In this document: one piece after another, positions 24,101 to 57,642 of the stretch
Layout of the letters: each line of letters opens with the position of its first letter
Position numbering within the stretch: the stretch's first letter is position 1
Source: a virus
DNA: 64,000 nt
IMG/VR virus record: IMGVR_UViG_3300027741_002766
Span: 44,738-108,737 of that record
Strand: one strand, 5' to 3'
The notes under the pieces: model-generated
Databases searched by the model: none
Told to the model about the DNA's origin: nothing
The model's input: only the letters and a program-made list of their open reading frames with translations
Position numbers and translations under genes: made by a program

Positions 24101-26364
24101 TACCAGAATCCTCCTTTGAGTAGATCGCCACGAGCATACTGCTGTAGGCTGAATACCCGGCTGACCTGCTGACGACTTTGCACAGGCAGTAGTGAAATGA
24201 CCATTTGCATGCGAGTGGGCACGTAAGTAGGTTGATTTTGTCCCAGAGTAGGCGGTGGTGGTCTGCAGGTCTCGGCGCCCTTGCTGATGCCTTGACTGTT
24301 GAACAGATTCTGCAGTCGACCCACAGCGCCCGATATGGGATCAGTGGCAGTGGTCTGTCGGTCTCTACGTGTGAGCATGTTGGATCCATTGATGTTGGTT
24401 GATCTGGTGCGAATATAGTCCACGTCGGCTGGCAAACTGTAATTGAAACTGGAGACCAAACATGGGTGTGCCGCAAATTGGTACTCGCCTAGTCCGGTAA
24501 GGTATACCAAAGGAGGTGGTGCTCCACGTTGAGCATCTTGACCGTAGAACATCTTGGTAACCGAACGGAAAAAATGTATCACTGCCAGCAGGTAGTTGGC
24601 CTCTGCGGTGTCTTGCGCAGTAAACACCGCAGTCATATTTACTGCATCTGTATAACTGCTCTTGTAAAAGTATCCCTTGTAGTTGCTGTGTGTGAGTGCA
24701 TATGAATCATAGTCAGCCTTGTAACTGGTTTCAATTTGCGGCATGTAAGGAAATATCACTCCACTGGTCAAGGCCAAAGGATTCAAAATTCCATTGCCTG
24801 GATCGTTGTAAAGATAGTTGGCTCCTGGGGCCAGGCTCAGGCGCACACGCCAGTCGCCGTTGTTGACTGCTCGCTTTTGTGCGGCATACACTGCCTGTTG
24901 TTGTGCCAGTGCGCGGCCCACTTGAGTTTGAATTGCTGATGCTTCTGCGGCTGTGACATTGGCAGTGGTTGCGCCAACCACAGTTGTTACCACATTGGCC
25001 AGGCTGGCTGTGTTAGCATCAACTGCTGTGGCCGATTTGGTTAAAAAATTCCCAAGATCGGCCTGCTGGGTTGTCAATGGCGAATCCGGCAGTTGTGGGA
25101 TACCCAGTCTTGCACGAATATAAGGGTCTGTGGGATCTGCATTGCCCAATGCTTGTCTCTGCTCAGGTGTTAGTCCTGCATAAGGATCAGATACTGGAGC
25201 CGGAGAATTTGATTCCCCAGTAGAGGCTCTATAACCGGCTGAGTTGGTGTCAATGGTAGCCTCGTTAAACTTGATTGTTTCTTGTGTGGTAGCAATATAG
25301 GCTTGATTTTCAGTGATGCTTTGATTCTGATCAAAAATGTTCTGTGCCTGTGCGGCATTTGCGGCTTCAAGTTCTGCACGTCTGGCAGCAGTTAAAGATT
25401 CAGAATTGGCCAATTCGGCATTGTTCTGTGCGATAATGCTTTCGCTGTCTGAAATTTTTTGTTGTGCTGACTGAATGGTCTGCGTGGCAGTGGCTATTCC
25501 TTCCTGACCTTTTGCAATTTCTGTACCAGCCTGATCGATGTTTGTTAGATAAGGATTTGGATTTTCTGAGTATGCGTTGAGTCTTGCCGCATCAATCACT
25601 GCCTGCTGATTGGCTGCGGCGATTGCGGCGCCAGCACCTGTATCAACCGCGGTTGCAGATTTGTTCACAGCATTGGTTTCTGTCAGTGCCTGCGGCGAGT
25701 TGGGATCCACAAGGCTGTTGATAAATCCTGGTGTGATATTTCTTGTGAGTTGCGCGGTTTGTGCGGCATCAAGAATAGTTAAACCAAATTCATCTTTGGT
25801 AGAGGCTGGATTAGATGTCAATGCCGATAAAGATTTTTGAACAGTGGCTGATTGAGCATAAGGACTAGCCGCTGGTGTTCGAGAGGTCAATGCTGACAAG
25901 GATCTTTGTACAGTGCCGACCGCTGATGTTGCTACATCCTTGACAGAATTGAAAAAGTTGCTGGCACTGGGCAGGCTGTTGAGTTCTGAACCTGGCAACT
26001 GGGGAATACCCAGTCTGGCACGGATATAGGGATCAGTGGGATCTGCCGTTCCTAAGGCTTTTAATTGCTCAGGAGTCAGTCCGTTATACGGGTCTAATGA
26101 TACTGTGGTCGACGTTCCTGCCGCGCCTTCACCTGTTGGTGCACCGTAGTCACCGTAGTCTGTGGTGTTTGACACTGTGTTAGGATCGTTGGTAGTTTGA
26201 TTAGGCCTAGTAGCATCGTTAAAGGCGGCATCACCTGCTAGACTTTGATTTTGTTCCCCAGTGTTGTCCAAGATTTCTTGGCCATACTCGTCACCATACT
26301 TGGTCACAGATGCGGGTACGTCACTGGGAAAATCTAGCGGTATTCCTTCAAAGTCATCAGACAT
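24100..26364 (-). CDS. Putative baseplate/hub structural protein, 754 aa, with two DPYxGLT modules and a coiled coil
   Basis: First gene of the leftward late block. Residues 1-80 are Asp/Thr/Asn-rich and probably disordered. Two copies of a module of about 33 residues follow: LDPYNGLTPEQLKALGTADP then TDPYIRARLGIPQLP (about 90-125), and SDPYAGLTPEQRQALGNADP then the same ending (about 392-427). Between them, about 280-375, is a long Ala/Gln/Glu-rich coiled coil. The C-terminal domain (about 460-754) has LLAVIHFFRSVTKMFYGQDA, APPPLVYLTGLGEYQFAAHP and FNYSLPADVDYIRTRS, a globular domain of the kind found in baseplate or tail-tube-junction proteins. RBS AAGGAAT lies 8 nt before ATG, with TAAATA 19 nt before it. 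The exact role is unknown. Confidence 0.75.
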   Translation of the reverse strand: MSDDFEGIPLDFPSDVPASVTKYGDEYGQEILDNTGEQNQSLAGDAAFNDATRPNQTTNDPNTVSNTTDYGDYGAPTGEGAAGTSTTVSLDPYNGLTPEQLKALGTADPTDPYIRARLGIPQLPGSELNSLPSASNFFNSVKDVATSAVGTVQRSLSALTSRTPAASPYAQSATVQKSLSALTSNPASTKDEFGLTILDAAQTAQLTRNITPGFINSLVDPNSPQALTETNAVNKSATAVDTGAGAAIAAANQQAVIDAARLNAYSENPNPYLTNIDQAGTEIAKGQEGIATATQTIQSAQQKISDSESIIAQNNAELANSESLTAARRAELEAANAAQAQNIFDQNQSITENQAYIATTQETIKFNEATIDTNSAGYRASTGESNSPAPVSDPYAGLTPEQRQALGNADPTDPYIRARLGIPQLPDSPLTTQQADLGNFLTKSATAVDANTASLANVVTTVVGATTANVTAAEASAIQTQVGRALAQQQAVYAAQKRAVNNGDWRVRLSLAPGANYLYNDPGNGILNPLALTSGVIFPYMPQIETSYKADYDSYALTHSNYKGYFYKSSYTDAVNMTAVFTAQDTAEANYLLAVIHFFRSVTKMFYGQDAQRGAPPPLVYLTGLGEYQFAAHPCLVSSFNYSLPADVDYIRTRSTNINGSNMLTRRDRQTTATDPISGAVGRLQNLFNSQGISKGAETCRPPPPTLGQNQPTYVPTRMQMVISLLPVQSRQQVSRVFSLQQYARGDLLKGGFW

Positions 26365-26383
26365 GTTTTATTCCTTGAACATG

Positions 26384-26389
26384 TATTTA
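26384..26389 (-). promoter_or_regulatory. Late-type promoter for the leftward baseplate block
   Basis: Minus-strand TTAAATAC lies 19 nt before the ATG at 26364, leaving a short leader that contains the ribosome-binding site AAGGAAT. It is the first such element upstream of the whole 26-kb minus-strand structural block and probably drives it after gp55 appears. Confidence 0.6.
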
Positions 26390-26421
26390 ACCAAAAAATT
26401 AACTGGTCCGTTTATAAAAGG

Positions 26422-26449
26422 TTGACAACTAGTACAAATGTGTTACACT
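26422..26449 (+). promoter_or_regulatory. Sigma70-like promoter for gp55 and the recombination genes
   Basis: TTGACA at 26422-26427 is followed after 16 nt by TACACT at 26444-26449, a good match to a host housekeeping promoter. It points rightward, toward gp55. An upstream in-frame ATG at 26438 lies inside this promoter, which argues against that start for gp55. Confidence 0.6.
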
Positions 26450-26479
26450 AAGTACATATCTGAAAGGAATCCCCAGTCA

Positions 26480-27373
26480 ATGACTGCAACTATCCGTGCC
26501 ACACCCAAAACCAACTATCTCAACAATAGAGATATCCTCAAAGAAATACATCTCAGCAAAAATTCTTATTGTGCCTTCCGAGATCCTGTGATCGATCATC
26601 AGTTTGACATAATCTTGCCCTCCGTCAGCAAGATCAATCAAAAGACCATAGCAGAAGCACGCCGCAATCGTGCTGACCGTCTCAAACGTGAAGGCACTAT
26701 AGTAGATCCTAAAAAAATCCCCAACACAGACGTTGTGTTCCGTATCACCTGCTGGGAACATATACCAATGGCGCCCAAAAAGATCACCAAGGCCGAAGCC
26801 AAAAAGCGCAAGTTAGAAGACATCCTGGAACTGGATGATGTCGCAGAAGATCCTCTAGCAGACCTTGTAGAGGAGCCAATCTTGGATCCTACCCACATGC
26901 GAGTGAACTTTCCTCCGTTCTGGCACTATCGAATTGACGAAAATAAAGTGCCTTTTGTGGTGGGTAAAAGCCATTGGCGGGGTACACTAGATGCGGGCGA
27001 GTTCTGTAAAGATCATGGCAAAATGACCCGAACTTTGGCCAACATGTTTATGAAGTTGTGCGAAAGATATGCTACAAGGAGTAACTGGCGTGGATACACA
27101 TACAACGAAGAAATGCGGGGACAAGCCCTGCTACAACTGTCTCAAATCGGACTCCAGTTCGATGAATCAAAATCGCAGAACCCTTTTGCGTATTATACTG
27201 CCGCTATCACTAATAGTTTCACTCGTATCCTAAACATTGAGAAAAAGAATCAAAACATACGTGATGACATCCTGGAAATGAACGGACTCAATCCGTCATG
27301 GACACGCCAGAACTCGGGCAAACACAGCATGGCTGCCATGTCCGGACCGGTTGTTTCTAGTCTTGATGAGTAG
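26480..27373 (+). CDS. 55: Late-transcription sigma factor gp55-like
   Basis: gp55 is the divergent phage sigma factor that lets host RNA polymerase recognise late TATAAATA promoters. I place the start at ATG 26480 (MTATIRATPKTNYLNN), preceded by AAAGGAAT, not at the upstream ATG in the promoter. Residues about 200-262 contain the sigma region-2-like part: WRGYTYNEEMRGQALLQLSQ and NPFAYYTAAITNSFTRILNI, the polymerase-binding and promoter-core-binding pattern conserved in gp55 homologues. At 297 aa it is longer than T4 gp55 (185 aa), with an extra N-terminal charged region (KITKAEAKKRKLEDILELDD). The presence of TAAATA elements throughout the window supports the assignment. Confidence 0.85.
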   Translation: MTATIRATPKTNYLNNRDILKEIHLSKNSYCAFRDPVIDHQFDIILPSVSKINQKTIAEARRNRADRLKREGTIVDPKKIPNTDVVFRITCWEHIPMAPKKITKAEAKKRKLEDILELDDVAEDPLADLVEEPILDPTHMRVNFPPFWHYRIDENKVPFVVGKSHWRGTLDAGEFCKDHGKMTRTLANMFMKLCERYATRSNWRGYTYNEEMRGQALLQLSQIGLQFDESKSQNPFAYYTAAITNSFTRILNIEKKNQNIRDDILEMNGLNPSWTRQNSGKHSMAAMSGPVVSSLDE

Positions 27374-27385
27374 TATAATAGGTTG

Positions 27386-28402
27386 ATGACTAACCTATTT
27401 CGCAAAGCCGCGGTCTTTACAGACATTCACTTTGGCCTAAAAAGCAACAGTGTTCAACACAACGAGGATTGCCTAAACTTTGTCAAGTGGGCCGTTGCTA
27501 AAGCCAAATCAGAAGGTTGTGAGACCTGTTTGTTTCTCGGCGACTGGCACAACAACCGTGCCAGCCTGAACATTGTTACCCTAAACTACAGCCTGCGGGC
27601 ACTGGAGCATATGAATGACAACTTCGAGCATGTTTTTTTCATTCCTGGTAATCATGACTTGTATTATCGCGACAAACGTGATATACAAAGCGTGGAATGG
27701 GCCCGTCATCTTCCGAATGTTACTATATGTAACGATTGGTTTAGTAGCGGCGATGTCGTTATTGCACCTTGGCTTTGCGGAGATGATCACAAACGCATTC
27801 CTAAACTAAAAGGTCGGTACATGTTTGGGCACTTTGAATTGCCTGGTTACTTGATGAACGCCATGGTAGAGATGCCGGATCACGGCGAAGTACGCAGAGA
27901 AGACTTTGGAAACTTTGAACATGTGTTCACTGGACACTTTCACAAACGACAGACCAAAAAGAACATTACCTATATTGGCAATTGTTTCCCGCACAACTAC
28001 GCCGATGCCGGAGACGATGAACGTGGCCTGACCATTATTGAGTGGGGGCAGGAGCCAGTGTATCATGCCTGGCCCGATCAACCCAGATATCGTGTGTTAG
28101 GCTTGGCCAATATCATCGACAACGCACCCAACTTACTTGCTCGAGACATGCATGTGCGTGTGCAGTTGGACATTGAGATATCATATGAAGAGGCCAACTT
28201 CATCAAAGAAACTTACATCCGGGATTATGGCTTGCGAGAGATGGCCTTGATACCCAACAAAAATAGTTCGGTGGACACTGACATGGCGCCCGGCGAAGTC
28301 AAATTTGAATCGGTGGATCAAATTGTTACTGATCAGATTACCAACATTGAATCAGAATTTTACGACAATAAATTGTTGTTAAAGATATACCAGACTCTAT
28401 GA
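27386..28402 (+). CDS. 47: Recombination endonuclease subunit gp47 (Mre11/SbcD-like)
   Basis: gp47 is the nuclease subunit of the phage Mre11-Rad50 complex that resects DNA ends for recombination-dependent replication. The calcineurin-type phosphoesterase motifs are in order: FTDIHFG (Asp13, His15), FLGDWHN (about residue 50), PGNHD (about 88) and TGHFHKR (about 185), which bind the two catalytic metals. I use ATG 27386; a TTG lies one codon upstream. Length (338 aa) matches T4 gp47 (339 aa). Its TGA overlaps the ATG of the next gene, the first of three unknown genes that separate it from gp46. Confidence 0.93.
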   Translation: MTNLFRKAAVFTDIHFGLKSNSVQHNEDCLNFVKWAVAKAKSEGCETCLFLGDWHNNRASLNIVTLNYSLRALEHMNDNFEHVFFIPGNHDLYYRDKRDIQSVEWARHLPNVTICNDWFSSGDVVIAPWLCGDDHKRIPKLKGRYMFGHFELPGYLMNAMVEMPDHGEVRREDFGNFEHVFTGHFHKRQTKKNITYIGNCFPHNYADAGDDERGLTIIEWGQEPVYHAWPDQPRYRVLGLANIIDNAPNLLARDMHVRVQLDIEISYEEANFIKETYIRDYGLREMALIPNKNSSVDTDMAPGEVKFESVDQIVTDQITNIESEFYDNKLLLKIYQTL

Positions 28403-28863
28403 CATGGAGACACACACAATTAGGTCAGTCATTGTGTGATCAAGACCAACTGATTTTACAACTGTTTGAACATCACACGGTAAAGTATGTGGGTCAAGAC
28501 TGGGAATTTGCCAAGTGCTTGAATCAAGACATTCAGTCTGATAATTTGATTCTAATACTAAATCAACCAATCTGGTGTTCGGAATTGATCTCCTTATGCA
28601 AAACTCACTTGTCTGAGTCTATCAAAACTTTCTACATCGGGATCAATAGATACTGTATCAAAGGAAACGACACTACCAAAGATTTCGAAATATCTCAACA
28701 CCAAGGCCAAGACATAGTTGACTTTGTTGGCGATCAACTTCATGAGCATGGATATTCTGTCACAAAGTCAGGCTCATTTGATCAAGACCTTGGCAGATAT
28801 TTCAACTTTGTGCAACCATTGACATGGCTATATGGATACAAAACAAAAAACACAGATAACTGA
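28399..28863 (+). CDS. Hypothetical protein A between gp47 and gp46, 154 aa
   Basis: No family recognised. It starts MTWRHTQLGQSLCDQDQLIL with an ATGA overlap to the gp47 stop and ends 32 nt inside the next gene. It looks globular with alternating beta and alpha segments (SDNLILILNQPIWCSELISL; SIKTFYIGINRYCIKG) and an aromatic C-terminus (YFNFVQPLTWLYGYK). It has no signal peptide or membrane span. Cys residues at several positions are not arranged as an obvious metal site. The tight coupling means it is made together with gp47. Confidence 0.7.
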   Translation: MTWRHTQLGQSLCDQDQLILQLFEHHTVKYVGQDWEFAKCLNQDIQSDNLILILNQPIWCSELISLCKTHLSESIKTFYIGINRYCIKGNDTTKDFEISQHQGQDIVDFVGDQLHEHGYSVTKSGSFDQDLGRYFNFVQPLTWLYGYKTKNTDN

Positions 28864-29407
28864 TCAAAATCGAGATAGTTTTTTCCGTCATGTGTACCAT
28901 CATCAGACTGACGCCAAAGATCAGTTGGTAGACCTTGATGGTTTAGAAGAATCCACAGTTATTTGCGTTGACTGCTGTGGATGGTATTATAAAACTTTGT
29001 TCCCACATAAATCCATCCAGAGTCTGGAAACAATAAAAACCGTAAAAAATTTCAATCTAGATCGTGCCTATTTTGATCGACTGATCGACAACCAGTCTGA
29101 TGATCGACTTGGCTGGCCATCTATATCTGCCGAGCAGTGTGCTGTGATATTTGACAGATCTCCTTTGCTCAAATATCAAACATTAGATCAGATATCTAGT
29201 GTGTTGAACACAGTGGCACACAAGTATACTCCTGCTACGATATTGTTAGAACAAGCATTGAAATTTATTGACGACACAAGATTGGTTGACCGATTTTACC
29301 ATGTATCGGCCCTCAAGATCAACGGATATGTTGTAACCAAGTTCGTGTATGATCTTGATGCAGATCGTCTCGGTATTTCTTTCCGCAAAAAAGTTCAACT
29401 GCCATGA
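28832..29407 (+). CDS. Hypothetical protein B between gp47 and gp46, 191 aa
   Basis: No family recognised with confidence. It overlaps the previous gene by 32 nt and ends with an ATGA overlap to the next. The region STVICVDCCGWYYKTLFPHK (about residues 40-60) resembles a beta-strand and turn opening a Rossmann-like domain. The C-terminal half has helix-rich segments (TILLEQALKFIDDTRLVDRF) and ends in paired strands (INGYVVTKFVYDLDAD). A Rossmann or methyltransferase-like fold is only a guess; no canonical GxGxG loop is visible. Confidence 0.7.
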   Translation: MDTKQKTQITDQNRDSFFRHVYHHQTDAKDQLVDLDGLEESTVICVDCCGWYYKTLFPHKSIQSLETIKTVKNFNLDRAYFDRLIDNQSDDRLGWPSISAEQCAVIFDRSPLLKYQTLDQISSVLNTVAHKYTPATILLEQALKFIDDTRLVDRFYHVSALKINGYVVTKFVYDLDADRLGISFRKKVQLP

Positions 29408-30285
29408 CAGATACAATTGCCATTGATTTTGTAGCAGGGACTCATGGTCATTTTCTTGAGACCACCCTGAATCGATTTTTTCGCATCACCCCTGACATGA
29501 CTGAATCTTTTACTGCAACAGGAACCAGTCATCTCAAAACCAATGAGTACCAACAAAACAAATTGTTTTGGGCCAGGCATTGGTTTGAACTTGAGCCTGT
29601 GCATCTAGCAAATTTACAAAAGATCATATCTATTAGATTCACGCAGGACGACTTGCTACTGGTATCTACAGCAAGTTTGTTACGGACTGCGGACTTCAAT
29701 ATCAACAATGATGATCTCGAAATTGACACAGTCAACAAGTTGAGCAACAATTTTTATCAGACAACTTTGGAACAGATTTATGCGGCATATCCGTTTTTGG
29801 ATCGAGCACAAGTATCCATACCCAGACATGTGCTGAGAGAATTTTATAAATTTGGTTTTAGAAATCCCCACATCAACGGCTATTGGTTGAAACAACAAGC
29901 CATGACATATCCCACACACTGCGACATTTGTTTTTTTGATTTTTCTGCTTTTTACGACCTAGACCAGTTGGTTCAAAATATCAAGAAAGTGGAAAAATTT
30001 ATAGACAAAAAATTTGATTTTTCCCAAGAGTTCTATCAACAGCATGAAAAATTTTTGAGTTTCATAACCTACCACCAGCACAAACAACAGTGCGACCATG
30101 TGATAGAATGTGTCAAACACGGCATGGATATCTCTATTCCAAGGCTCACATTGTTTCAAGAGAGTTACATCAATGGCTGTTTGGAAAATATCTACCACAA
30201 AGAAATGCCGTTTGATCAGGATAGGTACTTTACTTCTACTAAAGATATGCTATACTATATTACTAACCTTGCTCCAAATTTATGA
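29404..30285 (+). CDS. Hypothetical protein C between gp47 and gp46, 293 aa (possible sulfotransferase-like fold)
   Basis: It starts MTDTIAIDFVAGTHGHFLET. This strand-Gly-Thr-His-Gly-His-Phe-Leu-Glu opening is like the N-terminal nucleotide-binding turn of phage proteins loosely described as sulfotransferase-like, but the match is weak and no PAPS 3'-phosphate motif was identified. The remainder is helical and aromatic-rich (HVLREFYKFGFRNPHINGYW; FDFSAFYDLDQLVQNIKKVE). Both ends are ATGA overlaps: its start with gene B and its stop with gp46. It is therefore locked into the gp47-A-B-C-gp46 translation chain. Base composition is visibly AT-richer than the structural genes. Confidence 0.7.
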   Translation: MTDTIAIDFVAGTHGHFLETTLNRFFRITPDMTESFTATGTSHLKTNEYQQNKLFWARHWFELEPVHLANLQKIISIRFTQDDLLLVSTASLLRTADFNINNDDLEIDTVNKLSNNFYQTTLEQIYAAYPFLDRAQVSIPRHVLREFYKFGFRNPHINGYWLKQQAMTYPTHCDICFFDFSAFYDLDQLVQNIKKVEKFIDKKFDFSQEFYQQHEKFLSFITYHQHKQQCDHVIECVKHGMDISIPRLTLFQESYINGCLENIYHKEMPFDQDRYFTSTKDMLYYITNLAPNL

Positions 30286-32045
30286 TCCAAATTAAAAATT
30301 TAACTGTTCGAAACTTCATGAGTGTGGGTGCGGCCACGCAAGGCATTGACTTTGACCGTAGTGACCTTACACTTGTGCTGGGCGAGAACTTGGACCTGGG
30401 CGGTGATGGCTCACGCAACGGCACAGGCAAGACCACAATCATCAATGCACTAAGTTATGCCTTGTATGGTCAAGCACTTTCAAACATTCGCAAGGACAAT
30501 CTAGTAAACAAGACCAATGGCAAGAACATGTTGGTCAGTTTGGACTTTAGTGTCAACAGCCAAGAGTACAGAATTGAGCGTGGACGAAAGCCAAATGTAT
30601 TGCGTTTCTACGTCAACAACGAACACAAGGCAGCCGAAGACGAAGCACAAGGTGACTCAAGAGAAACACAGGATGCCATAGAACGTGTGATGAACATGAG
30701 TCATGACATGTTCAAACATGTGCTGGCGCTGAACACTTATACTGAACCGTTTCTAAGTTTAAAAGCCAATGATCAAAGAACTATCATTGAACAGTTGTTG
30801 GGTATTACACTATTGAGTGAACGTGCTGATGCAATCAAAGAACTTAACAGACAGACCAAAGATGCTATACAGGTAGAAGAGTTTCGCATTCGTGCTGTGC
30901 AAGAGGCCAACAAGCGCATCGAAGAACAGATTGAAAGTCTGCGTAAGCGTCAACGTCTTTGGATTACCAAACGTGATGAAGATGTGGGCAAACTAGGACA
31001 GGCTATTCAAGATCTCGAACATATAGACATTGATGCCGAAGTACAGGCACATAGAGATCTAGAAGCATTCCATGTCAAGAAGAAAGCCATAGACGATGCC
31101 ACGCGATACATTCGTCAGATTGATGCAGATGATGCCAAACTTACCAAACTGTTAGACAAACTCAAACGAGAAATTGAAGCACTGGATGCTCACAAGTGTC
31201 ACAGTTGCGGGCAAGACCTACATGATGACAAACAAGATGAGTTGAAGCAGGCCAAACAAGCCTTGGTACAAGAAACTGCATTACAACTCCTGGCCAACGA
31301 TACTCAACGAATTGAGCATACTGATACCTTGGAAAAACTAGGTGAACTAGGCTCTGCTCCTACTGTGTTTTATGATACATTAGAACAGGCGTTGAATCAT
31401 CGCAATACTGTAGAAACCTTACGCAAGGATTTGACCACAAGGCAAGCAGATGTGGATCCCTACGAAGAACAAATCACAGACATGCAAGGACAAGCATTAC
31501 AAACAGTATCATATGATACCTTGAACGAACTCACTAGAGTGCAGGATCATCAAGACTTCCTACTCAAACTGCTGACGTCAAAAGATTCGTTCGTACGCAA
31601 AAAGATTATTGATCAGAATTTGAGTTATTTGAACGCAAGACTCACACACTATCTGGATCGTATTGGATTGCCACACACAGTGAAGTTCCAGAACGATCTC
31701 ACAGTGAGCATCGAAGAACTGGGCCGTGAACTGGACTTTGACAACCTGAGCCGTGGCGAACGCAATCGATTGATACTATCAATGTCATGGGCGTTCCGAG
31801 ATGTTTGGGAAAGTTTATACTCACCAATCAACTTGTTGTTTATTGATGAACTGATCGACAACGGTCTAGACACACAAGGTGTAGAGAATGCTTTGGCTCT
31901 GCTGAAGAAAATGAGTAGAGAGCGTCACAAATCAATTTGGTTAGTATCACATCGTGATGAACTGGCTGGGCGTGTGGAGAACATACTCAAAGTCATAAAA
32001 GAAAACGGATTTACCAGTTACAACACTGACGTAGATCTTGCATAA
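30282..32045 (+). CDS. 46: Recombination endonuclease ATPase gp46 (Rad50/SbcC-like)
   Basis: gp46 is the ATPase partner of gp47. All SMC/Rad50 elements are present in order: Walker A GDGSRNGTGKTT (residues 41-52); long coiled-coil arms (about 175-300 and 320-450); zinc hook CHSCGQ (about 306-311) at the apex; ABC signature LSRGERNRL (about 489); Walker B NLLFIDELIDNGLD (about 516-529); and the H-loop WLVSHRDEL (about 553). Length (587 aa) is close to T4 gp46 (560 aa). It is translationally coupled to the unknown gene C instead of directly to gp47. Confidence 0.94.
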   Translation: MIQIKNLTVRNFMSVGAATQGIDFDRSDLTLVLGENLDLGGDGSRNGTGKTTIINALSYALYGQALSNIRKDNLVNKTNGKNMLVSLDFSVNSQEYRIERGRKPNVLRFYVNNEHKAAEDEAQGDSRETQDAIERVMNMSHDMFKHVLALNTYTEPFLSLKANDQRTIIEQLLGITLLSERADAIKELNRQTKDAIQVEEFRIRAVQEANKRIEEQIESLRKRQRLWITKRDEDVGKLGQAIQDLEHIDIDAEVQAHRDLEAFHVKKKAIDDATRYIRQIDADDAKLTKLLDKLKREIEALDAHKCHSCGQDLHDDKQDELKQAKQALVQETALQLLANDTQRIEHTDTLEKLGELGSAPTVFYDTLEQALNHRNTVETLRKDLTTRQADVDPYEEQITDMQGQALQTVSYDTLNELTRVQDHQDFLLKLLTSKDSFVRKKIIDQNLSYLNARLTHYLDRIGLPHTVKFQNDLTVSIEELGRELDFDNLSRGERNRLILSMSWAFRDVWESLYSPINLLFIDELIDNGLDTQGVENALALLKKMSRERHKSIWLVSHRDELAGRVENILKVIKENGFTSYNTDVDLA

Positions 32046-32122
32046 TTTCATATTGTAGGCATATTTTTAGATCAATCAATCAAGAGGCATAACTATATCG
32101 CAAGGACAAATCTTACACTTTT

Positions 32123-32551
32123 ATGACATGGCAATATCAAAACACTCCTGTAGAGACGTTGCCCGAAGACTGTGTAGGGTTTGTTTACTTGATCACAAAT
32201 AATCTTTCTGGACGCAAGTACATAGGCAAAAAATTAGCAAAATTCGCAAAAACCACATACAAAACTGTAAAACAAAAAAACGGCACAAAAAAGCGGAAGA
32301 AGATACGCTCTAAAATCGATTCAGATTGGAGAGAGTACTATGGGTCAAGCCCAGAATTGACCGCAGACGTAATCACACTAGGCACCGAAAACTTTACCAG
32401 AGAAATACTTTACTATTGCAAAAGCAAGTCTGAATGCTCGTACATTGAGGCCCGTGAACAATTTGCAAGGCGAGTATTGGAATCACAAGATTATTACAAT
32501 GGCCACATCCAGGTGCGGGTGCATGGCTCACACATAATAAACAAAATTTAA
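32123..32551 (+). CDS. GIY-YIG nuclease, SegE-like, 142 aa
   Basis: A small stand-alone GIY-YIG domain. The GIY strand is GFVYLITNNLSG (residues 19-30), the YIG strand RKYIGKK (31-37), and the usual arginine and glutamate positions are in DSDWREYYGSS (Arg70) and YIEAREQFAR (Glu109). A basic loop KQKNGTKKRKKIRSK sits between them. The fold catalyses DNA strand cleavage in homing endonucleases and repair nucleases. There is no extra DNA-binding module, so this is more like the SegE-type proteins fixed in T4-like phages than a mobile element. It follows gp46 by 77 nt and ends the rightward early unit. Confidence 0.8.
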   Translation: MTWQYQNTPVETLPEDCVGFVYLITNNLSGRKYIGKKLAKFAKTTYKTVKQKNGTKKRKKIRSKIDSDWREYYGSSPELTADVITLGTENFTREILYYCKSKSECSYIEAREQFARRVLESQDYYNGHIQVRVHGSHIINKI

Positions 32552-32968: not shown

Positions 32969-33508
32969 CTAAAGTAACTGTAACTGTTTCAACTTTGAGA
33001 TATAGTATGGTTGTCCTTGAGCAACTGATTGACGCCAATCATCATGTGCATCTTGATTGGCTTGATCGCTGATGTATTTCCAACACTCAAATTCAACTCC
33101 ATACTTTGCACAGGCTTTGGCAATGGCATAGGCTTCCATATCTACTATGTCTGCTGGTATTTCTAGTTGGGGATTCATCACAAAGTTATCACCGGTACTG
33201 CAAGTCAGTCCAATTGTGTTGCCAATATGTACGTTGGTTTCAAAAGGCGTTTGTCCAGGCACACATCCCAAGGCTTCGCAGATCATGTCACGTTGTACAA
33301 ACTGGGTACACTGATAGAATCCTGGTGCAACAGTGATGCCTCCGGCTGTGCCAAAGTTGATGATGCGTCGGGGACGATACTTGGCTATGACTTCGGCGGT
33401 GACCATGGCAGCATTGACCTTGCCCACACCTGTGTAAAACAAGTTCATCATGTGGCCAAGATCCGGTGCCTCTTCAGGCAAGGCTATTAGAATAACAGTG
33501 TCATACAT
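32969..33508 (-). CDS. MTA/SAH nucleosidase-like (PNP/UDP phosphorylase family), 179 aa
   Basis: The family cleaves the N-glycosidic bond of 5'-methylthioadenosine or S-adenosylhomocysteine, releasing adenine. Visible motifs are the general-acid loop ALPEEAP with Glu12 at the same position as in E. coli MTA/SAH nucleosidase; GVGKVNAA (27-34); NFGTAGG (51-57); VDMEAYAIA (122-130), whose Met-Glu contacts the ribose; and ISDQAN with Asp148, the purine-binding acid. At 179 aa it is shorter than typical enzymes (about 230 aa), having lost loops but no key residue I can check. It overlaps the adenine phosphoribosyltransferase gene by 8 nt in the same operon, which fits adenine release. Other purine nucleosidases of the family are possible. 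Confidence 0.82.
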   Translation of the reverse strand: MYDTVILIALPEEAPDLGHMMNLFYTGVGKVNAAMVTAEVIAKYRPRRIINFGTAGGITVAPGFYQCTQFVQRDMICEALGCVPGQTPFETNVHIGNTIGLTCSTGDNFVMNPQLEIPADIVDMEAYAIAKACAKYGVEFECWKYISDQANQDAHDDWRQSVAQGQPYYISKLKQLQLL

Positions 33509-34022
33509 AATCTTCTAGTGAGAACAATTGAATCGAGTTTTGCTTTAGCACAGACTCACCTGGCAAGAACTTAAGATTTACAATCACTGCGGCTGACACT
33601 TGTTCAATGCCAAAATCACAGGTTAGCAGTTCGCTCACAGCCTGTATGGTACCGCCAGTGGCCAGGAGATCATCCACCACAAGAGGTTGAGTACCCACAG
33701 GCGCTGATATTTTGATTTCCACTGTGTCTGTACTGTACTCTGTAGCATAGTTTTTTGCATATACTGGTCTTGGCAGTTTGTTGGGTTTACGTGCTAGGAT
33801 CAAGGGCAGATTGGTTTGATATGCCACAGCAGCCGCAAAAGGGAATCCTCTGCTTTCCATGGCCACTAGACTGGTTGCTTTGGTTGTTTGCGCACACTGG
33901 GCTAACCATTCAACACAATGCGCAAAGGCTGCAGGAGTTTCCAGTACAGGAGTTATGTCAAGAAAATCGACTCCTGTTCTGGGCCAGTCAGGAATGGTTG
34001 GAATAATTAGTTTGAGATTCAT
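33501..34022 (-). CDS. apt: Adenine phosphoribosyltransferase-like, 173 aa
   Basis: This enzyme joins adenine and PRPP to make AMP. The N-terminal IPDWPRTGVDFLDITPVLET (residues 10-29) matches the Apt signature; AMESRGFPFAAAVA (54-67) and ARKPNKLP (77-84) form the adenine-binding side; and LVVDDLLATGGTIQA (114-128) is the complete PRPP-binding loop with both acidic residues. The length is normal for Apt. The gene lies 6 nt after the gp51-like gene and overlaps the nucleosidase downstream, so it is probably expressed with the late tail genes. Together the pair forms a two-step adenine salvage path. Specificity for adenine is inferred from the full-length similarity and the neighbour. Confidence 0.87.
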   Translation of the reverse strand: MNLKLIIPTIPDWPRTGVDFLDITPVLETPAAFAHCVEWLAQCAQTTKATSLVAMESRGFPFAAAVAYQTNLPLILARKPNKLPRPVYAKNYATEYSTDTVEIKISAPVGTQPLVVDDLLATGGTIQAVSELLTCDFGIEQVSAAVIVNLKFLPGESVLKQNSIQLFSLEDYV

Positions 34023-37360: not shown

Positions 37361-39139
37361 ATGGCTGGATGGCGAAAATATTTTAAAGTGGCTGACCTCT
37401 CAGGTCAGATGAGCCCTATTTCGGGTGGTAGAGATGCGGGCTTGCCCGGATATCCACGAAACGATGGTCGTGGATCAAATCTAGCACAGACTGATTTTGC
37501 ATTCCGTAACTATGCCAGCCGACTGCCAGAAGTGTATTCTGGGCACCCTAATCGAATTGAACGCTACAATCAATATGAAAACATGGACGCTGACTCAGAA
37601 GTCAATGCATGTTTAGATATTATCGCCGAGTTCTCCACACAACTCAATGACGACAACAACACTCCATTTGAGATACAGTATTCAGATGAACCCACTGACC
37701 ACGAAATTGAGATCATCCGCAAGCAGATGCAACAGTGGACCAAACTCAACAAACTAGATCAGCGCATCTTCAAACTGTTCCGTAACACCATCAAGTACGG
37801 TGATCAAATCTTTGTGCGTGATCCAGAAACATTTGAAATGTACTGGGTAGACATGTCAAAAGTCAGCCGAGTAATTGTAAACGAATCGGAAGGCAAGCGT
37901 CCTGAGCAGTACATCATTAGAGATATCAATCCCAACTTTCAAAACTTGACAGTGGCAGCCAAGACCACCACAGATTTCATGGTTAATCCGCCCACAGGTG
38001 GTGGTTATCAGCAGGGTTCGGGCTATACCATGCCCAACACTGCCATGACAGGAACCAGTAGATTTAGCCGTGCTGTGAACGAGACCTGTATTGATGCCAA
38101 ACACGTGGTGCATCTTTCCATGAATGAAGGCTTAGACACGTTTTGGCCCTTTGGCAAGTCAATCCTGGAAAACATTTTCAAAGTATTCAAGCAGAAAGAA
38201 CTGCTGGAAGATGCGTTACTAATCTATCGTGTGCAACGTGCTCCTGAGCGCAGAGTGTTCAAGATTGACGTGGGCAACATGCCATCACACCTGGCCATGC
38301 AATTTGTGGAACGTGTGAAAAATGAAATGCACCAACGCAGAATACCCACATACGGTGGCGGTGGTGGCAACATCATGGATTCAAGTTACAATCCATTGAG
38401 TATCAACGAAGACTTCTTTTTCCCCACAGGTGCTGATGGACGTGGCTCTAGTGTAGATGTATTACCGGGCGGTCAAAATCTAGGCGAAATCGACGATTTA
38501 AAGTACTTCAACAACAAAATGGCTCGTGGTTTACGTGTGCCGTCAAGTTACTTGCCCACTGCGCCTGACGACTCCGAGCGCACCATGCAGGACGGCAAAG
38601 TGGGTACGGCCTTGATTCAAGAGTATAGATTCAACCAGTATTGCGAGCGACTGCAAGCACTTATCATGCAGAAACTTGATGATGAATTTAAGATGTTCCT
38701 GCGCTGGAGAGGCTTCAACATTGATGCTGGCCTGTTCCAACTCAAGTTCAACCCACCACAAAACTTTGCCAGTTATCGTCAGGCTGAGATGGACACAGCA
38801 CGTATCAGCAGTTTTACCAGTCTGGAGCAGTTGCCTTACATGAGCAAACGTTTTATGCTAGAGCGTTTCTTGGGTCTCAGCAAGGACGAAATTGAAAGAA
38901 ACGAAACAATGTGGCGTGAAGAACGTGACCGACCTGAACTGCAAACCACACAAGGGCAGGACCTACGCTCAATTGGTATTACTCCAGCAGGTATGGAAAC
39001 TGATATTGCCACAGGTGAAGAAATGGCCAATCTACAGGCACCTGCCGCAGAAGGTGGCTTGCCAGCCGCACCTGCAGGCGGTGTAGGTGGTACTATACCG
39101 GGCGTTCAAGCACCGGCGGCCGCACCGGCGGGATTATAA
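37361..39139 (+). CDS. 20: Portal vertex protein gp20, 592 aa
   Basis: gp20 forms the dodecameric portal at one capsid vertex through which DNA is packaged and ejected. The sequence is clearly of the T4-like gp20 family: NRIERYNQYENMDADSEVNA (about residues 67-86), LFRNTIKYGDQIFVRDPETF (about 144-163), LLIYRVQRAPERRVFKIDVG and ARGLRVPSSYLPTAPDDSER are its usual landmarks. Length is similar to T4 gp20 (524 aa), plus an Ala/Pro/Gly-rich C-terminal tail of about 45 residues. Its TAA stop lies inside TATAAATA, directly before an HNH endonuclease gene inserted between gp20 and the rest of the head cluster. Confidence 0.94.
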   Translation: MAGWRKYFKVADLSGQMSPISGGRDAGLPGYPRNDGRGSNLAQTDFAFRNYASRLPEVYSGHPNRIERYNQYENMDADSEVNACLDIIAEFSTQLNDDNNTPFEIQYSDEPTDHEIEIIRKQMQQWTKLNKLDQRIFKLFRNTIKYGDQIFVRDPETFEMYWVDMSKVSRVIVNESEGKRPEQYIIRDINPNFQNLTVAAKTTTDFMVNPPTGGGYQQGSGYTMPNTAMTGTSRFSRAVNETCIDAKHVVHLSMNEGLDTFWPFGKSILENIFKVFKQKELLEDALLIYRVQRAPERRVFKIDVGNMPSHLAMQFVERVKNEMHQRRIPTYGGGGGNIMDSSYNPLSINEDFFFPTGADGRGSSVDVLPGGQNLGEIDDLKYFNNKMARGLRVPSSYLPTAPDDSERTMQDGKVGTALIQEYRFNQYCERLQALIMQKLDDEFKMFLRWRGFNIDAGLFQLKFNPPQNFASYRQAEMDTARISSFTSLEQLPYMSKRFMLERFLGLSKDEIERNETMWREERDRPELQTTQGQDLRSIGITPAGMETDIATGEEMANLQAPAAEGGLPAAPAGGVGGTIPGVQAPAAAPAGL

Positions 39140-39142
39140 ATA
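39135..39142 (+). promoter_or_regulatory. Perfect late promoter core TATAAATA over the gp20 stop codon
   Basis: TATAAATA matches the T4 late consensus exactly. It overlaps the gp20 stop and ends 4 nt before the HNH endonuclease ATG (39147). Confidence 0.6.
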
Positions 39143-39146
39143 CAGC

Positions 39147-39806
39147 ATGAACAATTATCGTAAGATATACAAAAATCATTATGGTAAAATTCCAACTGAT
39201 GAAACCGGAAGATCTTACGAAATTCATCACATTGACGGTAATCATACCAACAACAATATTAGTAATCTTAAATTAGTTACAATTCAAGAACATTACAATA
39301 TTCATTATTCTCAGCAAGATTGGGGAGCCTGTCAAGCAATAGCAATTCGCATGGAAATTGATCATGCTACTATTTCTGACATGGCAAGAAAATCCAGTTT
39401 GGCTAGAGTTGCTAAAGGGACTCATCCATTTTCTGGACCAGCACAGAATCTTAAAAAAGTAGCGAATGGAACGCACCCATCAAAAATTAGGATGGAAAAC
39501 AGAACACATAATTTTTTGGGTGAGAATCACCCAATGAAAGTGGCTTCGGCAAACGGAACCCATCATTTTAGTAGTAAAAAACTTGAAGAGTTAAAACAAA
39601 CCAATCCTGACAAATTTGCAAAAATTTGTAAACAACGATCAGATACTGCGTTTCAACGAATAGCAAATGGAACCCATGCTGGTGTTAAAATATTTTCTAC
39701 CTACCACACTTGTCCACATTGTGGCAAACAGGGAAAAGGTGCTATTATGTATAGATTTCATTATGATAATTGTAAAACAATAAAGAAACTAAATATTGAA
39801 TTATGA
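39147..39806 (+). CDS. HNH homing endonuclease with C-terminal zinc finger, 219 aa
   Basis: I use ATG 39147 (MNNYRKIYKNHYGKIPTDET), after the gp20 stop. The HNH nuclease core is YEIHHIDGNHTNNNISNLKL (residues 24-43) followed by VTIQEHYNIHY. The middle part has repeated GTHPF/GTHPS/ENHPM/GTHHF units like NUMOD-type DNA-binding modules (about 90-155). The C-terminus has CPHCGKQGKGAIMYRFHYDN followed by C, a CxxC...H...C zinc finger like that of the GIY-YIG endonuclease at 44088. The gene is visibly AT-rich compared with its neighbours and sits free-standing between gp20 and the small head gene, as expected of a mobile element. Its stop overlaps the next start (ATGA). Confidence 0.87.
   Translation: MNNYRKIYKNHYGKIPTDETGRSYEIHHIDGNHTNNNISNLKLVTIQEHYNIHYSQQDWGACQAIAIRMEIDHATISDMARKSSLARVAKGTHPFSGPAQNLKKVANGTHPSKIRMENRTHNFLGENHPMKVASANGTHHFSSKKLEELKQTNPDKFAKICKQRSDTAFQRIANGTHAGVKIFSTYHTCPHCGKQGKGAIMYRFHYDNCKTIKKLNIEL
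39790..39795 (+). promoter_or_regulatory. TAAATA element 7 nt before the 72-aa head-cluster gene
   Basis: CTAAATATTGAATTATG lies inside the last codons of the HNH gene and places the late core 7 nt before ATG 39803, so the downstream gene keeps its own element despite the insertion. Confidence 0.45.
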
Positions 39807-42754: not shown

Positions 42755-43966
42755 ATGTCAGAACAATTATTAGAAAGCCGCTGGGGCGAAACCAAAGAAG
42801 CATTGCTTGAAGGTTTGAACGGTTCCAAGCGCAACAGCATGAGTGTTATCCTCGAAAACACTCGCAAGTACTTGAAGGAAAACGCAAGTGGTGGTTCAAC
42901 AGGCTCTGGTAACATTGCCACATTGAACCGCGTGATTTTGCCAGTGATCCGTCGTGTGATGCCAACAGTTATTGCTAACGAGTTGGTGGGCGTTCAGCCA
43001 ATGACAGGCCCAGTTGGTCAAATCCACACATTACGTGTGCGTTATGCCAACTCAATGACTGACAACAGTCCAGCGCAGACCAGCACTGCGGCCGGTCAAG
43101 AAGCATTGAGCCCATTCTTGATTGCTCAAGCATATTCTTCAGCATCTAGCGTTACTGCTGGTGTTGTTGACCCAACACAGAACATCTACTCTGGTGCTAA
43201 CACATCAGTTCTAGAAGGTTCTGGTGGTCGTCAAATTTCCGTGCAAATCTTGAAGCAGGCTGTTGAAGCCAAGACTCGCAAGTTGCAAGCACGTTGGACT
43301 TTTGAAGCCGCTCAAGACGCACAAGCAATGCATGGTATCGACGTAGAAGCCGAAATCATGGCCGCTTTGGCTCAAGAGATCACTGCTGAAATCGACCAAG
43401 AGATTCTTTTGAGTCTCCGTAGTTTGGCTTCAACTGAGTACACATACAACCAAGCAACTGTTTCAGGTACTGCTACATTCGTTGGTGACGAGCATGCCGC
43501 ATTGGCAGTTTTGATCAACCGTGTTGCTAACTTGATCGCCCAACGCACACGTCGTGGCGCAGGTAACTACGCTGTTGTGTCTTCAGCAAGTTTGACAGTG
43601 TTGCAATCTGCAACTACTTCTGCTTTTGCACGTACTACAGAAGGTACATTCGAAGCACCTACAAACACCAAGTTTGTTGGTACATTGAACGGCGCAATGC
43701 GTGTGTTCGTTGACTCTTATGCAAGTGACACAACTCCTGTGTTGGTTGGTTACAAGGGTTCTTCAGAAGCAGACGCTCCAGCATTCTACTGCCCATACAT
43801 TCCTTTGATGTCAAGTGGTGTTGTGTTGGATCCCACAACCTTTGAACCAGTTGTGTCATTCATGACACGCTACGGGTTTATCGAACTCACTAACACCGCA
43901 TCGTCTTTTGGCAATGCTGGCGATTATGTGGGAGAGATAGCCGTTTCGAATCTGAGTTTCTCCTAA
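42755..43966 (+). CDS. 23: Major capsid protein gp23, 403 aa
   Basis: gp23 forms the hexamers of the T4-like capsid. The N-terminus is MSEQLLESRWGETKEALLEG, and the HK97-type core has ATLNRVILPVIRRVMPTVIA, NELVGVQPMTGPVGQIHTLR and FVGTLNGAMRVFVDSYASDT. A gp21-type cleavage site (L/I)xE is visible as LKE at residues 40-42, followed by a Gly/Ser/Thr-rich segment; cutting there would remove a 42-residue propeptide. An alternative ILE lies at 32-34. At 403 aa it is shorter than T4 gp23 (521 aa). AAGGAG lies 8 nt before ATG, and a strong intrinsic terminator follows the gene. Confidence 0.94.
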   Translation: MSEQLLESRWGETKEALLEGLNGSKRNSMSVILENTRKYLKENASGGSTGSGNIATLNRVILPVIRRVMPTVIANELVGVQPMTGPVGQIHTLRVRYANSMTDNSPAQTSTAAGQEALSPFLIAQAYSSASSVTAGVVDPTQNIYSGANTSVLEGSGGRQISVQILKQAVEAKTRKLQARWTFEAAQDAQAMHGIDVEAEIMAALAQEITAEIDQEILLSLRSLASTEYTYNQATVSGTATFVGDEHAALAVLINRVANLIAQRTRRGAGNYAVVSSASLTVLQSATTSAFARTTEGTFEAPTNTKFVGTLNGAMRVFVDSYASDTTPVLVGYKGSSEADAPAFYCPYIPLMSSGVVLDPTTFEPVVSFMTRYGFIELTNTASSFGNAGDYVGEIAVSNLSFS

Positions 43967-43993: not shown

Positions 43994-44020
43994 AAAAAAA
44001 GCACCTTCGGGTGCTTTTTT
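43994..44020 (+). terminator. Intrinsic terminator after gp23 (UUCG tetraloop)
   Basis: A-run, then GCACC-TTCG-GGTGC and TTTTTT. A GC stem with a C(UUCG)G loop and a T-run ends the head operon. Confidence 0.9.
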
Positions 44021-44076
44021 GTTGACTTTTCTTTCTAAAAATGTTATTGTTACAAGGCGAAATTGCGGTGAGAAAC

Positions 44077-44082
44077 TAAATA
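44077..44082 (+). promoter_or_regulatory. TAAATA element 5 nt before the GIY-YIG homing endonuclease
   Basis: ACTAAATAACAATATG: the late core is 5 nt before ATG 44088, between the gp23 terminator and the endonuclease gene. There is no Shine-Dalgarno sequence. Confidence 0.5.
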
Positions 44083-44087
44083 ACAAT

Positions 44088-44843
44088 ATGAAACCATACA
44101 CCTATCTAATAAAACATCGTCCTACAAGCAAAGTCTATTATGGATATCGTTCTGCTAACCAAGTAAATCCGTGTGATGATCTTTGGAAACATTATTTTAC
44201 CAGTAGTCATGGTGTACAACAGTTGATTGATGAAACCGGCGCAGATAGTTTTGATGTGGAAATACGCAGAATATTTGAAACCAAAGAACAGGCAAGCAAC
44301 TGGGAAACCCGAGTATTACGTCGCTGCCGAGTATTAGAAGACGAGCGTTGGCTTAATCAAAACATTGCCGGTTATATTGTGCCCACCAAAGAAAGCCGAA
44401 AAAAGATCAGTGACTACCACAAAGGAAAACCTAAGAGTGATCAACACAAACAAAATCTAAGTAAATCACAAAAAGGTAAATCAAAAAATTATGTACAAAC
44501 AGAAGAACACAAAAGAAAAAATTCTTTAGCAAACAGTGGGAAAAATAATCCGATGTACGGTACTTGTACACCTGAACGTGCGGCAAATATAAGTGCCGCT
44601 AAAAAAGGTAAACCTGCCGCAAACAAAGGTGTTCCGATGAGTGAAGAGCAAAAAGCAAAGATTCGTGCTACTAAAGCCATTAGTCCAACTAAGATGAGTG
44701 CGGAGTCAATCGCTCGCCGGATAGCCAAACAAACTGGCCAAAAACGACAAAAACTACACTGCCCACATTGTGAACGAGACATAGCAGTCGGGTGGTATAA
44801 TCGGCACGGTGATCAATGCCGCGCCCGACTAAATACCTTGTGA
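44088..44843 (+). CDS. GIY-YIG homing endonuclease with NUMOD3-like repeats and zinc finger, 251 aa
   Basis: ATG 44088 (MKPYTYLIKHRPTSKVYYGY) is used because the upstream frame runs into the gp23 terminator. The N-terminal GIY-YIG-type core is PYTYLIKHRPTSKVYYGYRS (residues 3-22) with a later Arg/Glu-rich helix (WETRVLRRCRVLEDERW). Residues about 105-205 contain several KGKP/SGKNNPMYG/KGKPAANKG units of the NUMOD3 DNA-binding type. The C-terminus has CPHCERDIAVGWYNRHGDQC, a CxxC...H...C finger related to that of the HNH gene at 39147. It lies between two UUCG terminators, downstream of gp23, a favourite place for homing genes. Confidence 0.85.
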   Translation: MKPYTYLIKHRPTSKVYYGYRSANQVNPCDDLWKHYFTSSHGVQQLIDETGADSFDVEIRRIFETKEQASNWETRVLRRCRVLEDERWLNQNIAGYIVPTKESRKKISDYHKGKPKSDQHKQNLSKSQKGKSKNYVQTEEHKRKNSLANSGKNNPMYGTCTPERAANISAAKKGKPAANKGVPMSEEQKAKIRATKAISPTKMSAESIARRIAKQTGQKRQKLHCPHCERDIAVGWYNRHGDQCRARLNTL

Positions 44844-47090: not shown

Positions 47091-47095
47091 GAAGA

Positions 47096-47101
47096 TATTT
47101 A
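47096..47101 (-). promoter_or_regulatory. TAAATA element 5 nt before the TPR-glycosyltransferase
   Basis: Minus-strand GTAAATATCTTCATG puts the late core 5 nt before ATG 47090, without a Shine-Dalgarno sequence. Confidence 0.5.
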
Positions 47102-47140
47102 CTAACACCGGCACACTGGGCAAAATAAACTAGATTTACA

Positions 47141-51884: not shown

Positions 51885-51891
51885 AAAAAAA

Positions 51892-51897
51892 TAAATA
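51892..51897 (+). promoter_or_regulatory. Late-type promoter TAAATA before the 1889-aa fibre gene
   Basis: AATAAATACTTTTG lies 64 nt before ATG 51962. The leader ends in TTAGGAGTTCCAATG with a good ribosome-binding site. Confidence 0.55.
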
Positions 51898-51961
51898 CTT
51901 TTGACAAAGATTGGATGATCCAGTCTAGTATAAGTAGAAAAGACCAAACTTAGGAGTTCCA

Positions 51962-57631: not shown

Positions 57632-57642
57632 AAGGATAGCGA

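What the first reader, a model, noticed from the sequence alone, without database searches (positions are those of the whole stretch)
28399..30285. Three unknown genes locked between the two subunits of the gp46/gp47 nuclease
Seen: the chain gp47 - A (154 aa) - B (191 aa) - C (293 aa) - gp46 is joined by ATGA overlaps at three of the four junctions and a 32-nt overlap at the other. Known: in T4-like phages gp46 and gp47 are usually close neighbours, with at most small genes between. Inference: translation coupling places A, B and C under the same dosage control as the recombination nuclease, so they may serve end processing, inhibit a host nuclease or defence, or be hitchhikers at a tolerated insertion point. 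None matches a family I can name; C has only a weak sulfotransferase-like opening.
Basis: partly seen in the sequence, partly recalled or inferred. Interest (0 to 1): 0.62.

Follow-up and report, generated by a model that had tools for sequence, protein, structure and literature searches.

The report
Swappable gene cassette within nuclease operon
Three previously unnamed virus genes sit between the two halves of a DNA-repair nuclease; relatives show that this junction is a docking slot where viruses repeatedly swap different accessory genes, and this trio is one conserved version whose second and third genes look like unusual relatives of methyl- and sulfo-transferring enzymes.

Summary
The gene layout is confirmed to the base: gp47, A, B, C and gp46, with ATGA overlaps at three junctions and 32 nt at A/B. 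A, B and C are real proteins under purifying selection (omega about 0.06-0.21), conserved in that order in 33 viruses distinct by gp46 sequence. None was found in 50,697 cultured-phage genomes; A and C gave no relative in scans of 84,980 bacterial and archaeal genomes. They are not part of the nuclease. Among related viruses the gp47|gp46 junction is empty (1-nt ATGA overlap), filled by unrelated + strand genes (radical SAM, SGNH-like, ThiF, others), or filled by A-B-C; on the gp46 tree A-B-C needs at least 12-17 changes. Window and L023 share 93% of gp46 but only 45/26/37% of A/B/C. So this is a swappable, in-register cargo slot, and gp55|gp47 and gp46|SegE are slots too. B is confidently predicted as a class I methyltransferase fold with a degenerate SAM motif. 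C has a P-loop, weakly sulfotransferase-like fold without the PAPS-binding Lys/Arg, and is a remote cousin of the slot's commonest other single gene. A is unassigned. Most likely a mobile tailoring-enzyme cassette; substrate unknown.

The parts
26438..27373 (+). gp55-like late sigma factor, left neighbour; gp55|gp47 is a second cargo slot in relatives
   Evidence: phrog_12791 E 1e-76; gap >150 nt in 19 of 58 loci
27383..28402 (+). gp47, SbcD-like nuclease subunit, left wall of the slot
   Evidence: phrog_100 E 1e-62, Pfam Metallophos E 3e-6
28399..28402 (+). left junction ATGA (stop of gp47 / start of A)
   Evidence: sequence; same 4-nt overlap at the left end of the cargo in 57 of 73 loaded loci
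28399..28863 (+). gene A, 154 aa, new family; invariant R4 Q7 C13 Q15 D16, N83-R84-Y85, G89-N90, D130, N136-F137-x-Q139-P140-x-T142-W143-x-Y145
   Evidence: 49 loci, 30-sequence alignment A6; no family; omega 0.06-0.21
28832..29407 (+). gene B, 191 aa, predicted class I methyltransferase fold with degenerate SAM motif I (D47-C-C-G50-W-Y-Y53) and conserved acid E66; invariant D47, Y53, Y115, R150, R154
   Evidence: model pLDDT 89.7, pTM 0.87; 28 PDB matches E<=1e-3, best RmtF 4.8e-6; conservation
29404..30285 (+). gene C, 293 aa, P-loop, weakly sulfotransferase-like fold; N-terminal loop V-A-G-T-H-G-H-F-L-E; remote relative of the commonest other single-gene cargo of the slot
   Evidence: model pLDDT 93.4, pTM 0.89; fold searches; hhalign with the cluster-1 family prob 97, E 1e-10
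30282..30285 (+). right junction ATGA (stop of C / start of gp46)
   Evidence: sequence; empty sites read ..TATGAT.. with a 1-nt overlap
30282..32045 (+). gp46, SbcC-like nuclease subunit, right wall of the slot
   Evidence: phrog_77 E 2e-99, Pfam AAA_23 E 2e-13
32123..32551 (+). SegE-like GIY-YIG endonuclease, conserved boundary downstream; gp46|SegE is a third cargo slot in relatives
   Evidence: Pfam SegE_GIY-YIG E 3e-33; present downstream in 36 of 37 loci, more than 300 nt from gp46 in 31

Best explanation
The gp47|gp46 junction is a translation-preserving docking slot for exchangeable accessory genes, and A-B-C is one ancient, cohesive three-gene allele of it. Shown: the same junction is empty, holds unrelated genes, or holds A-B-C in close relatives; cargo is co-directional and usually joined by ATGA to both walls, so an insertion or deletion leaves gp46 in the same operon. 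Inferred: alleles are exchanged by homologous recombination in the well-conserved gp47 and gp46 genes, possibly helped by the neighbouring SegE-like endonuclease; A-B-C is expressed with the replication/recombination genes but is not a nuclease subunit. Function, inferred: a small tailoring pathway in which B (methyltransferase fold) and C (P-loop, sulfotransferase-like fold) act, with A, on one substrate, most likely a host or virion surface molecule or a small metabolite, like the other enzyme cargo of the slot. I put the slot model at about 0.85 and the tailoring-enzyme role at about 0.4.
For: Slot: 26 distinct loci have no gene between gp47 and gp46 (24 of them with the 1-nt ATGA overlap) and 40 have other cargo. 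Cargo is 99.4% + strand by bases; 57 of 73 left junctions are ATGA and 34 of 73 right junctions are 4-nt overlaps. Cargo types: radical SAM (NF033640, E 1e-79), DUF6071 proteins with an SGNH-like start, ThiF, TctC plus AMP-binding, TauD. Repeated gain/loss: on the gp46 tree the A-B-C label needs 17 changes, 12 forced by supported branches. Allele replacement: window and L023 share 93% of gp46 but 45/26/37% of A/B/C. Cohesion: order gp47-A-B-C-gp46 in all complete loci, B and C identities correlated 0.8, omega 0.06-0.21. C-family genes alone fill the slot (L174-L176, L185) or the gp55|gp47 slot (L027, L032, L082). Folds: B, C. Lower G+C of A, B, C (0.375-0.39) than gp47 and gp46 (0.45, 0.43).
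Against: A was never found outside this slot, and no member of the trio in a cultured phage or, for A and C, a bacterial genome, which is odd for a freely mobile cassette; a marine clade of 11 distinct viruses keeps A-B-C throughout, and C identity tracks gp46 identity (Spearman 0.69), so part of the history is vertical. B lacks the glycine-rich SAM motif and C lacks the PAPS Lys/Arg, so enzymatic activity is not assured. The recombination route was not shown directly. The locus sample was selected by the tool's patterns and is not unbiased.
Confidence: 0.7

Rival explanations
1. A, B and C are accessory factors of the gp46/gp47 nuclease (end processing or regulation), kept in stoichiometry by translational coupling.
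For: A occurs only between gp47 and gp46; tight overlaps; remote C relatives in other phage lineages sit next to a DNA-polymerase family gene and near primase, DnaB-like helicase and a DNA helicase.
Against: 66 distinct related loci have gp46/gp47 without A-B-C, including viruses with gp46 94-95% identical; the same junction accepts unrelated metabolic genes; A identity does not follow gp46 identity (Spearman 0.19); the closest cultured relative has gp47 and gp46 directly joined.
Confidence: 0.1
2. A-B-C is a counter-defence or host-takeover cassette, swapped because hosts differ in defences.
For: Fast turnover among close relatives and deep allelic divergence fit an arms race; one radical SAM cargo protein has a weak similarity to viperin models.
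Against: No PADLOC match for A, B or C; strong purifying selection without sign of diversifying selection; the other cargo is mostly metabolic or tailoring enzymes; no host or target known.
Confidence: 0.2
3. B and C modify the phage's own DNA or its nucleotides (hypermodification), protecting it from nucleases, which is why they sit with replication genes.
For: Methyltransferase fold in B (closest solved folds are rRNA and tRNA methyltransferases), P-loop fold in C, placement in replication clusters in two kinds of phages.
Against: No match to known DNA-modification families in Pfam, NCBIfam or PHROGs; no SAM motif in B; cargo alternatives in the same slot are not DNA enzymes; close relatives do without.
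Confidence: 0.1
4. The trio is a decaying remnant or an annotation artefact.
For: Some relatives have truncated A, or lack B or C (L107; L156-L159).
Against: Open frames conserved in 33 distinct viruses, omega 0.06-0.21, high-confidence folds for B and C.
Confidence: 0.02

Closest known systems
Hyperplastic / hypervariable regions of T4-like phages (e.g. the g15-g18 region of cyanomyoviruses, PMC2984593; 'hot-spots' such as gp46-gp25 in cyanophages, PMC3037559; the host recognition cluster of pelagimyophages, PMC7029224)
   Same: Conserved core genes separated by exchangeable accessory genes, including radical SAM cassettes.
   Different: Here the exchange happens inside a two-gene enzyme operon, one to three genes at a time, in register with ATGA junctions at both ends; I found no report of a gp47|gp46 slot in the papers searched.
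gp47-gp46 junctions of cultured phages: Wroclawvirus Cassandra (empty, 1-nt overlap), T4 (444 nt between the genes), Prochlorococcus phage P-HM2 (one short gene here and one between gp55 and gp47)
   Same: Same gene order gp55-gp47-gp46, and additional genes tolerated in the same places.
   Different: None carries A, B or C.
Class I SAM-dependent methyltransferases (closest solved folds: 16S rRNA methylases RmtF and ArmA, tRNA Trm11)
   Same: B: strand/helix order and overall fold; acidic residue at the end of strand 2.
   Different: About 10% identity, TM-score 0.4-0.5, glycine-rich motif I replaced by D-C-C-G-W-x-Y; conserved R150/R154/Y115 unusual.
PAPS-dependent sulfotransferases (StaL, Teg12, SULT1C2) and uncharacterised uncultured-Caudovirales proteins such as A0A6J5P8Z8
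   Same: C: N-terminal strand-loop-helix and a central 'I-x-I-x-F-D-x-D-D-L-L' strand-helix like that of sulfotransferases; clear structural match to four uncharacterised phage proteins (E 2e-14 to 8e-7).
   Different: Only weak structural similarity to sulfotransferases (E 0.06-0.1, TM 0.30-0.36); cofactor-binding Lys and Arg absent.

Membership tests
gp46/gp47 (SbcCD-like) recombination nuclease of T4-like phages | both subunits matched by curated phage families | tested here: met
   phrog_100 E 1e-62 and phrog_77 E 2e-99
gp46/gp47 (SbcCD-like) recombination nuclease of T4-like phages | A, B, C are obligatory parts of the operon | tested here: not met
   26 distinct loci empty and 40 with other cargo
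Exchangeable region (hyperplastic region) of T4-like phages | conserved flanks with variable gene content among close relatives | tested here: met
Exchangeable region (hyperplastic region) of T4-like phages | recombination crossovers within the flanking genes | not tested
   inferred only from the identity drop between flanks and cargo
Class I SAM methyltransferase (gene B) | seven-strand alternating fold | tested here: met
   model pLDDT 89.7; 28 PDB matches E<=1e-3, all methyltransferases but one GRAS-domain protein
Class I SAM methyltransferase (gene B) | glycine-rich motif I (D/E-x-G-x-G-x-G) | tested here: not met
   D47 invariant, followed by C/S-C-G-W-x-Y53 in most members; only one conserved Gly, out of register
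Class I SAM methyltransferase (gene B) | acidic residue at the end of strand 2 | tested here: met
   E66 is E or D in 28 of 29
Class I SAM methyltransferase (gene B) | binds SAM and transfers methyl | not testable with these tools
   needs protein
PAPS sulfotransferase (gene C) | sulfotransferase fold | tested here: inconclusive
   sulfotransferases are 8 of the first 9 PDB hits but E 0.06-0.17 and TM 0.25-0.36
PAPS sulfotransferase (gene C) | Pfam Sulfotransfer match | tested here: not met
   none in 35 members at E 0.05; one member at E 0.06, below cut-off
PAPS sulfotransferase (gene C) | catalytic Lys in the 5'-phosphosulfate loop | tested here: not met
   no Lys at positions 10-19 in any of 35 members
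PAPS sulfotransferase (gene C) | Arg of the 3'-phosphate site after the central strand | tested here: not met
   position 79 is F in 28 of 35 and never R; R78 in only 9; the equivalence is by motif, not by structural superposition
DUF2172 (gene A) | Pfam match at cut-off across the family | tested here: not met
   1 of 30 members, E 0.0026, 18.5 bits against a cut-off of 27
Anti-phage defence or counter-defence genes (PADLOC) | match to a PADLOC model | tested here: not met
   none for A, B, C

The most novel reading that the evidence does not exclude
A-B-C is a dedicated three-protein enzyme system of a new kind (degenerate-SAM methyltransferase fold plus a non-PAPS, sulfotransferase-like P-loop protein plus an orphan protein) whose product modifies phage DNA or its ends, and which is therefore exchanged only as a unit inside the recombination-nuclease operon.
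Probability: 0.06. Interest if true: 0.8.

Novelty: new variant of a known kind. Interest (0 to 1): 0.42.

Why it matters
It shows that accessory genes of large tailed phages can be swapped inside a two-subunit core enzyme operon without disturbing it, by keeping stop/start (ATGA) junctions in register. That gives a defined place to look for exchangeable phage genes in uncultured viruses. It also defines three unnamed protein families, one with a methyltransferase fold and an unusual cofactor site, one belonging to a broad superfamily of phage P-loop proteins that recurs in these slots. It warns that tight translational coupling to a core gene is not evidence of shared function.

Tried and rejected
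Sequence searches for A, B, C in Pfam, PHROGs, NCBIfam, PADLOC and the PDB gave nothing usable; weak hits (DUF2172 for A, antiholin for C, designed Pizza proteins for B) do not hold across members and were dismissed. tblastn of A, B, C against cultured phages: nothing; scans of bacterial and archaeal genomes with C and A: nothing (B was not scanned there). Profile comparison of A with B and C: unrelated. Promoter and terminator scan over 26300-32200: promoter-like sites as many as in shuffles, no terminator-like site on the + strand. T4 late-promoter octamer TATAAATA: 2 in the window, as by chance, none here. A search of the window's own 109-kb record for the cluster-1 family found none, without a positive control.

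Full report
WHAT IS THERE. The five genes lie exactly as described: gp47 27383-28402, A 28399-28863, B 28832-29407, C 29404-30285, gp46 30282-32045 on the + strand, with 4-nt ATGA overlaps at gp47/A, B/C and C/gp46 and a 32-nt overlap at A/B. gp47 and gp46 are the SbcD-like and SbcC-like subunits. The window is bases 44738-108737 of a 108,737-base virus record. By gp46 its nearest cultured relatives are Pseudomonas jumbo phages of the genus Wroclawvirus (51% identity); T4 gp46 matches only about half the protein at about 30%.

A, B AND C ARE REAL AND CONSERVED. Scans of the viral collection found A in 49 places, B in 30 and C in 76; a second scan for A with a 30-sequence profile found almost only the same contigs, so the search is close to saturated. 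Of 48 places with sequence upstream, 46 have gp47 before A, in 40 of them ending exactly at the first base of A; 45 of 46 with enough sequence downstream have gp46 after. The two upstream exceptions are a contig with a TauD-family gene before A (L107/L242) and a weak 31% fragment match (L213). Ratios of amino-acid-changing to silent change are 0.06-0.21 where measurable. None of the three is in 50,697 cultured-phage records, and A and C gave no relative in scans of 84,980 bacterial and archaeal genomes (B was not scanned there).

THE JUNCTION IS A SLOT. Among loci fetched by gp46 alone, gp47 and gp46 are often directly joined with a 1-nt overlap reading ..TATGAT.. (24 of 26 empty loci), as in the cultured Wroclawvirus. 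In 40 other distinct loci the gap holds one to three unrelated genes: radical SAM proteins (NF033640 E 1e-79 for one), DUF6071 proteins with SGNH-like starts, a TctC receptor with an AMP-binding enzyme, and others. Over 99% of cargo bases are on the + strand; 57 of 73 left junctions are ATGA and 34 of 73 right junctions 4-nt overlaps. On a tree of 99 gp46 sequences A-B-C needs 17 changes, at least 12 forced by supported branches. The window and L023 share 93% of gp46 but 45, 26 and 37% of A, B and C, so even where both hold A-B-C the cassette alleles differ far more than the walls. Pieces are partly independent: C alone (L174-L176, L185), A-B without a recognised C (L107), shortened A with C (L156-L159), and A-B-C with an extra ThiF gene (L023). 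The same plasticity holds on both sides: gp55|gp47 is filled in 19 of 58 loci and gp46|SegE in 31 of 36. So the place is a slot within a generally plastic cluster, not a special lock on the nuclease.

WHAT THE PROTEINS LOOK LIKE. B is modelled with high confidence (pLDDT 89.7, pTM 0.87) and its 28 best solved matches are methyltransferases but for one GRAS-domain protein (RmtF E 4.8e-6). It lacks the glycine-rich SAM motif but keeps D47 and the acid after strand 2 (E/D in 28 of 29), and has invariant Y53, Y115, R150 and R154. C is modelled with very high confidence (pLDDT 93.4, pTM 0.89). Its clear structural relatives are four uncharacterised proteins of uncultured phages; its best solved matches are sulfotransferases, weakly (E 0.06-0.17), and the cofactor Lys and Arg of that family are absent in all 35 members, judged by motif position. 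Profile comparison joins C to the commonest other single-gene cargo of the slot, the 'YPSGGFGHF' family (probability 97, E 1e-10), whereas unrelated pairs give 0.1-0.2. C relatives also fill the gp55|gp47 slot (L027, L032, L082). So a broad superfamily of P-loop phage proteins recurs in these slots. A has no assignment and no model.

HOW IT MOST LIKELY WORKS. Shown: slot behaviour, cohesion, constraint, folds. Inferred: exchange by homologous recombination in the conserved gp47 and gp46 walls, with ATGA junctions letting ribosomes run on to gp46 whatever the cargo; the SegE-like GIY-YIG endonuclease that bounds the cluster in 36 of 37 loci may help. Inferred with less certainty: A-B-C is a small tailoring pathway acting on a surface molecule or metabolite, by analogy with the other enzyme cargo. 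A link with DNA processing is not excluded: in other phage lineages C relatives (30-39%) sit next to a DNA-polymerase family gene and near primase and helicase genes. But the nuclease plainly works without A-B-C in many close relatives.

LIMITS. Gene calls in the survey are mechanical. The tree is a quick one. The structural family of C rests on weak scores against solved structures.

VERDICT. A new variant of the known exchangeable regions of T4-like phages, carrying three new protein families.

Noticed in passing
window 32969-34022 (- strand): A phosphorylase-superfamily gene (PNP_UDP_1, E 4e-18) overlapping a phosphoribosyltransferase gene (Pribosyltran, E 3e-13); looks like a purine salvage pair that could recycle adenine from SAM by-products.
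   Followed up: partly
window 48172-63524 (+ strand): A run of very large proteins built of many short 'TGGNLLTGGLISATG'-like repeats with near-identical C-terminal ends; tail-fibre or adhesin-like, with high potential for recombination between copies.
   Followed up: no
window 39087-39806 and 44019-44843: Free-standing HNH_3 and GIY-YIG/NUMOD3 endonuclease genes inside the structural gene region (beside the genes at 37361-39139 and 42755-43966).
   Followed up: partly
window 45933-47123 (- strand): TPR plus glycosyltransferase family 9 protein on the strand opposite to its neighbours, in the structural region.
   Followed up: partly
L039:3530-5940 and L085:1828-4187: The same unusual cargo pair (TctC solute receptor and AMP-binding enzyme) in the gp47|gp46 slot of two viruses, but in opposite order.
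   Followed up: partly
L197, L203, L205, L208, L214, L219: Remote C relatives in other phage lineages, in most of them between a zinc-finger-like gene and a DNA-polymerase family gene, sometimes with SGNH-like or radical SAM-like neighbours.
   Followed up: partly
L031:3387-4979: A radical SAM cargo protein (twitch-domain family NF033640) with weak similarity to viperin models (E 4e-10 in PADLOC); probably general radical SAM similarity.
   Followed up: no
L194:5986-7766: C and its remote cousin of the 'YPSGGFGHF' family side by side between gp47 and gp46, suggesting stacking of related cargo.
   Followed up: no
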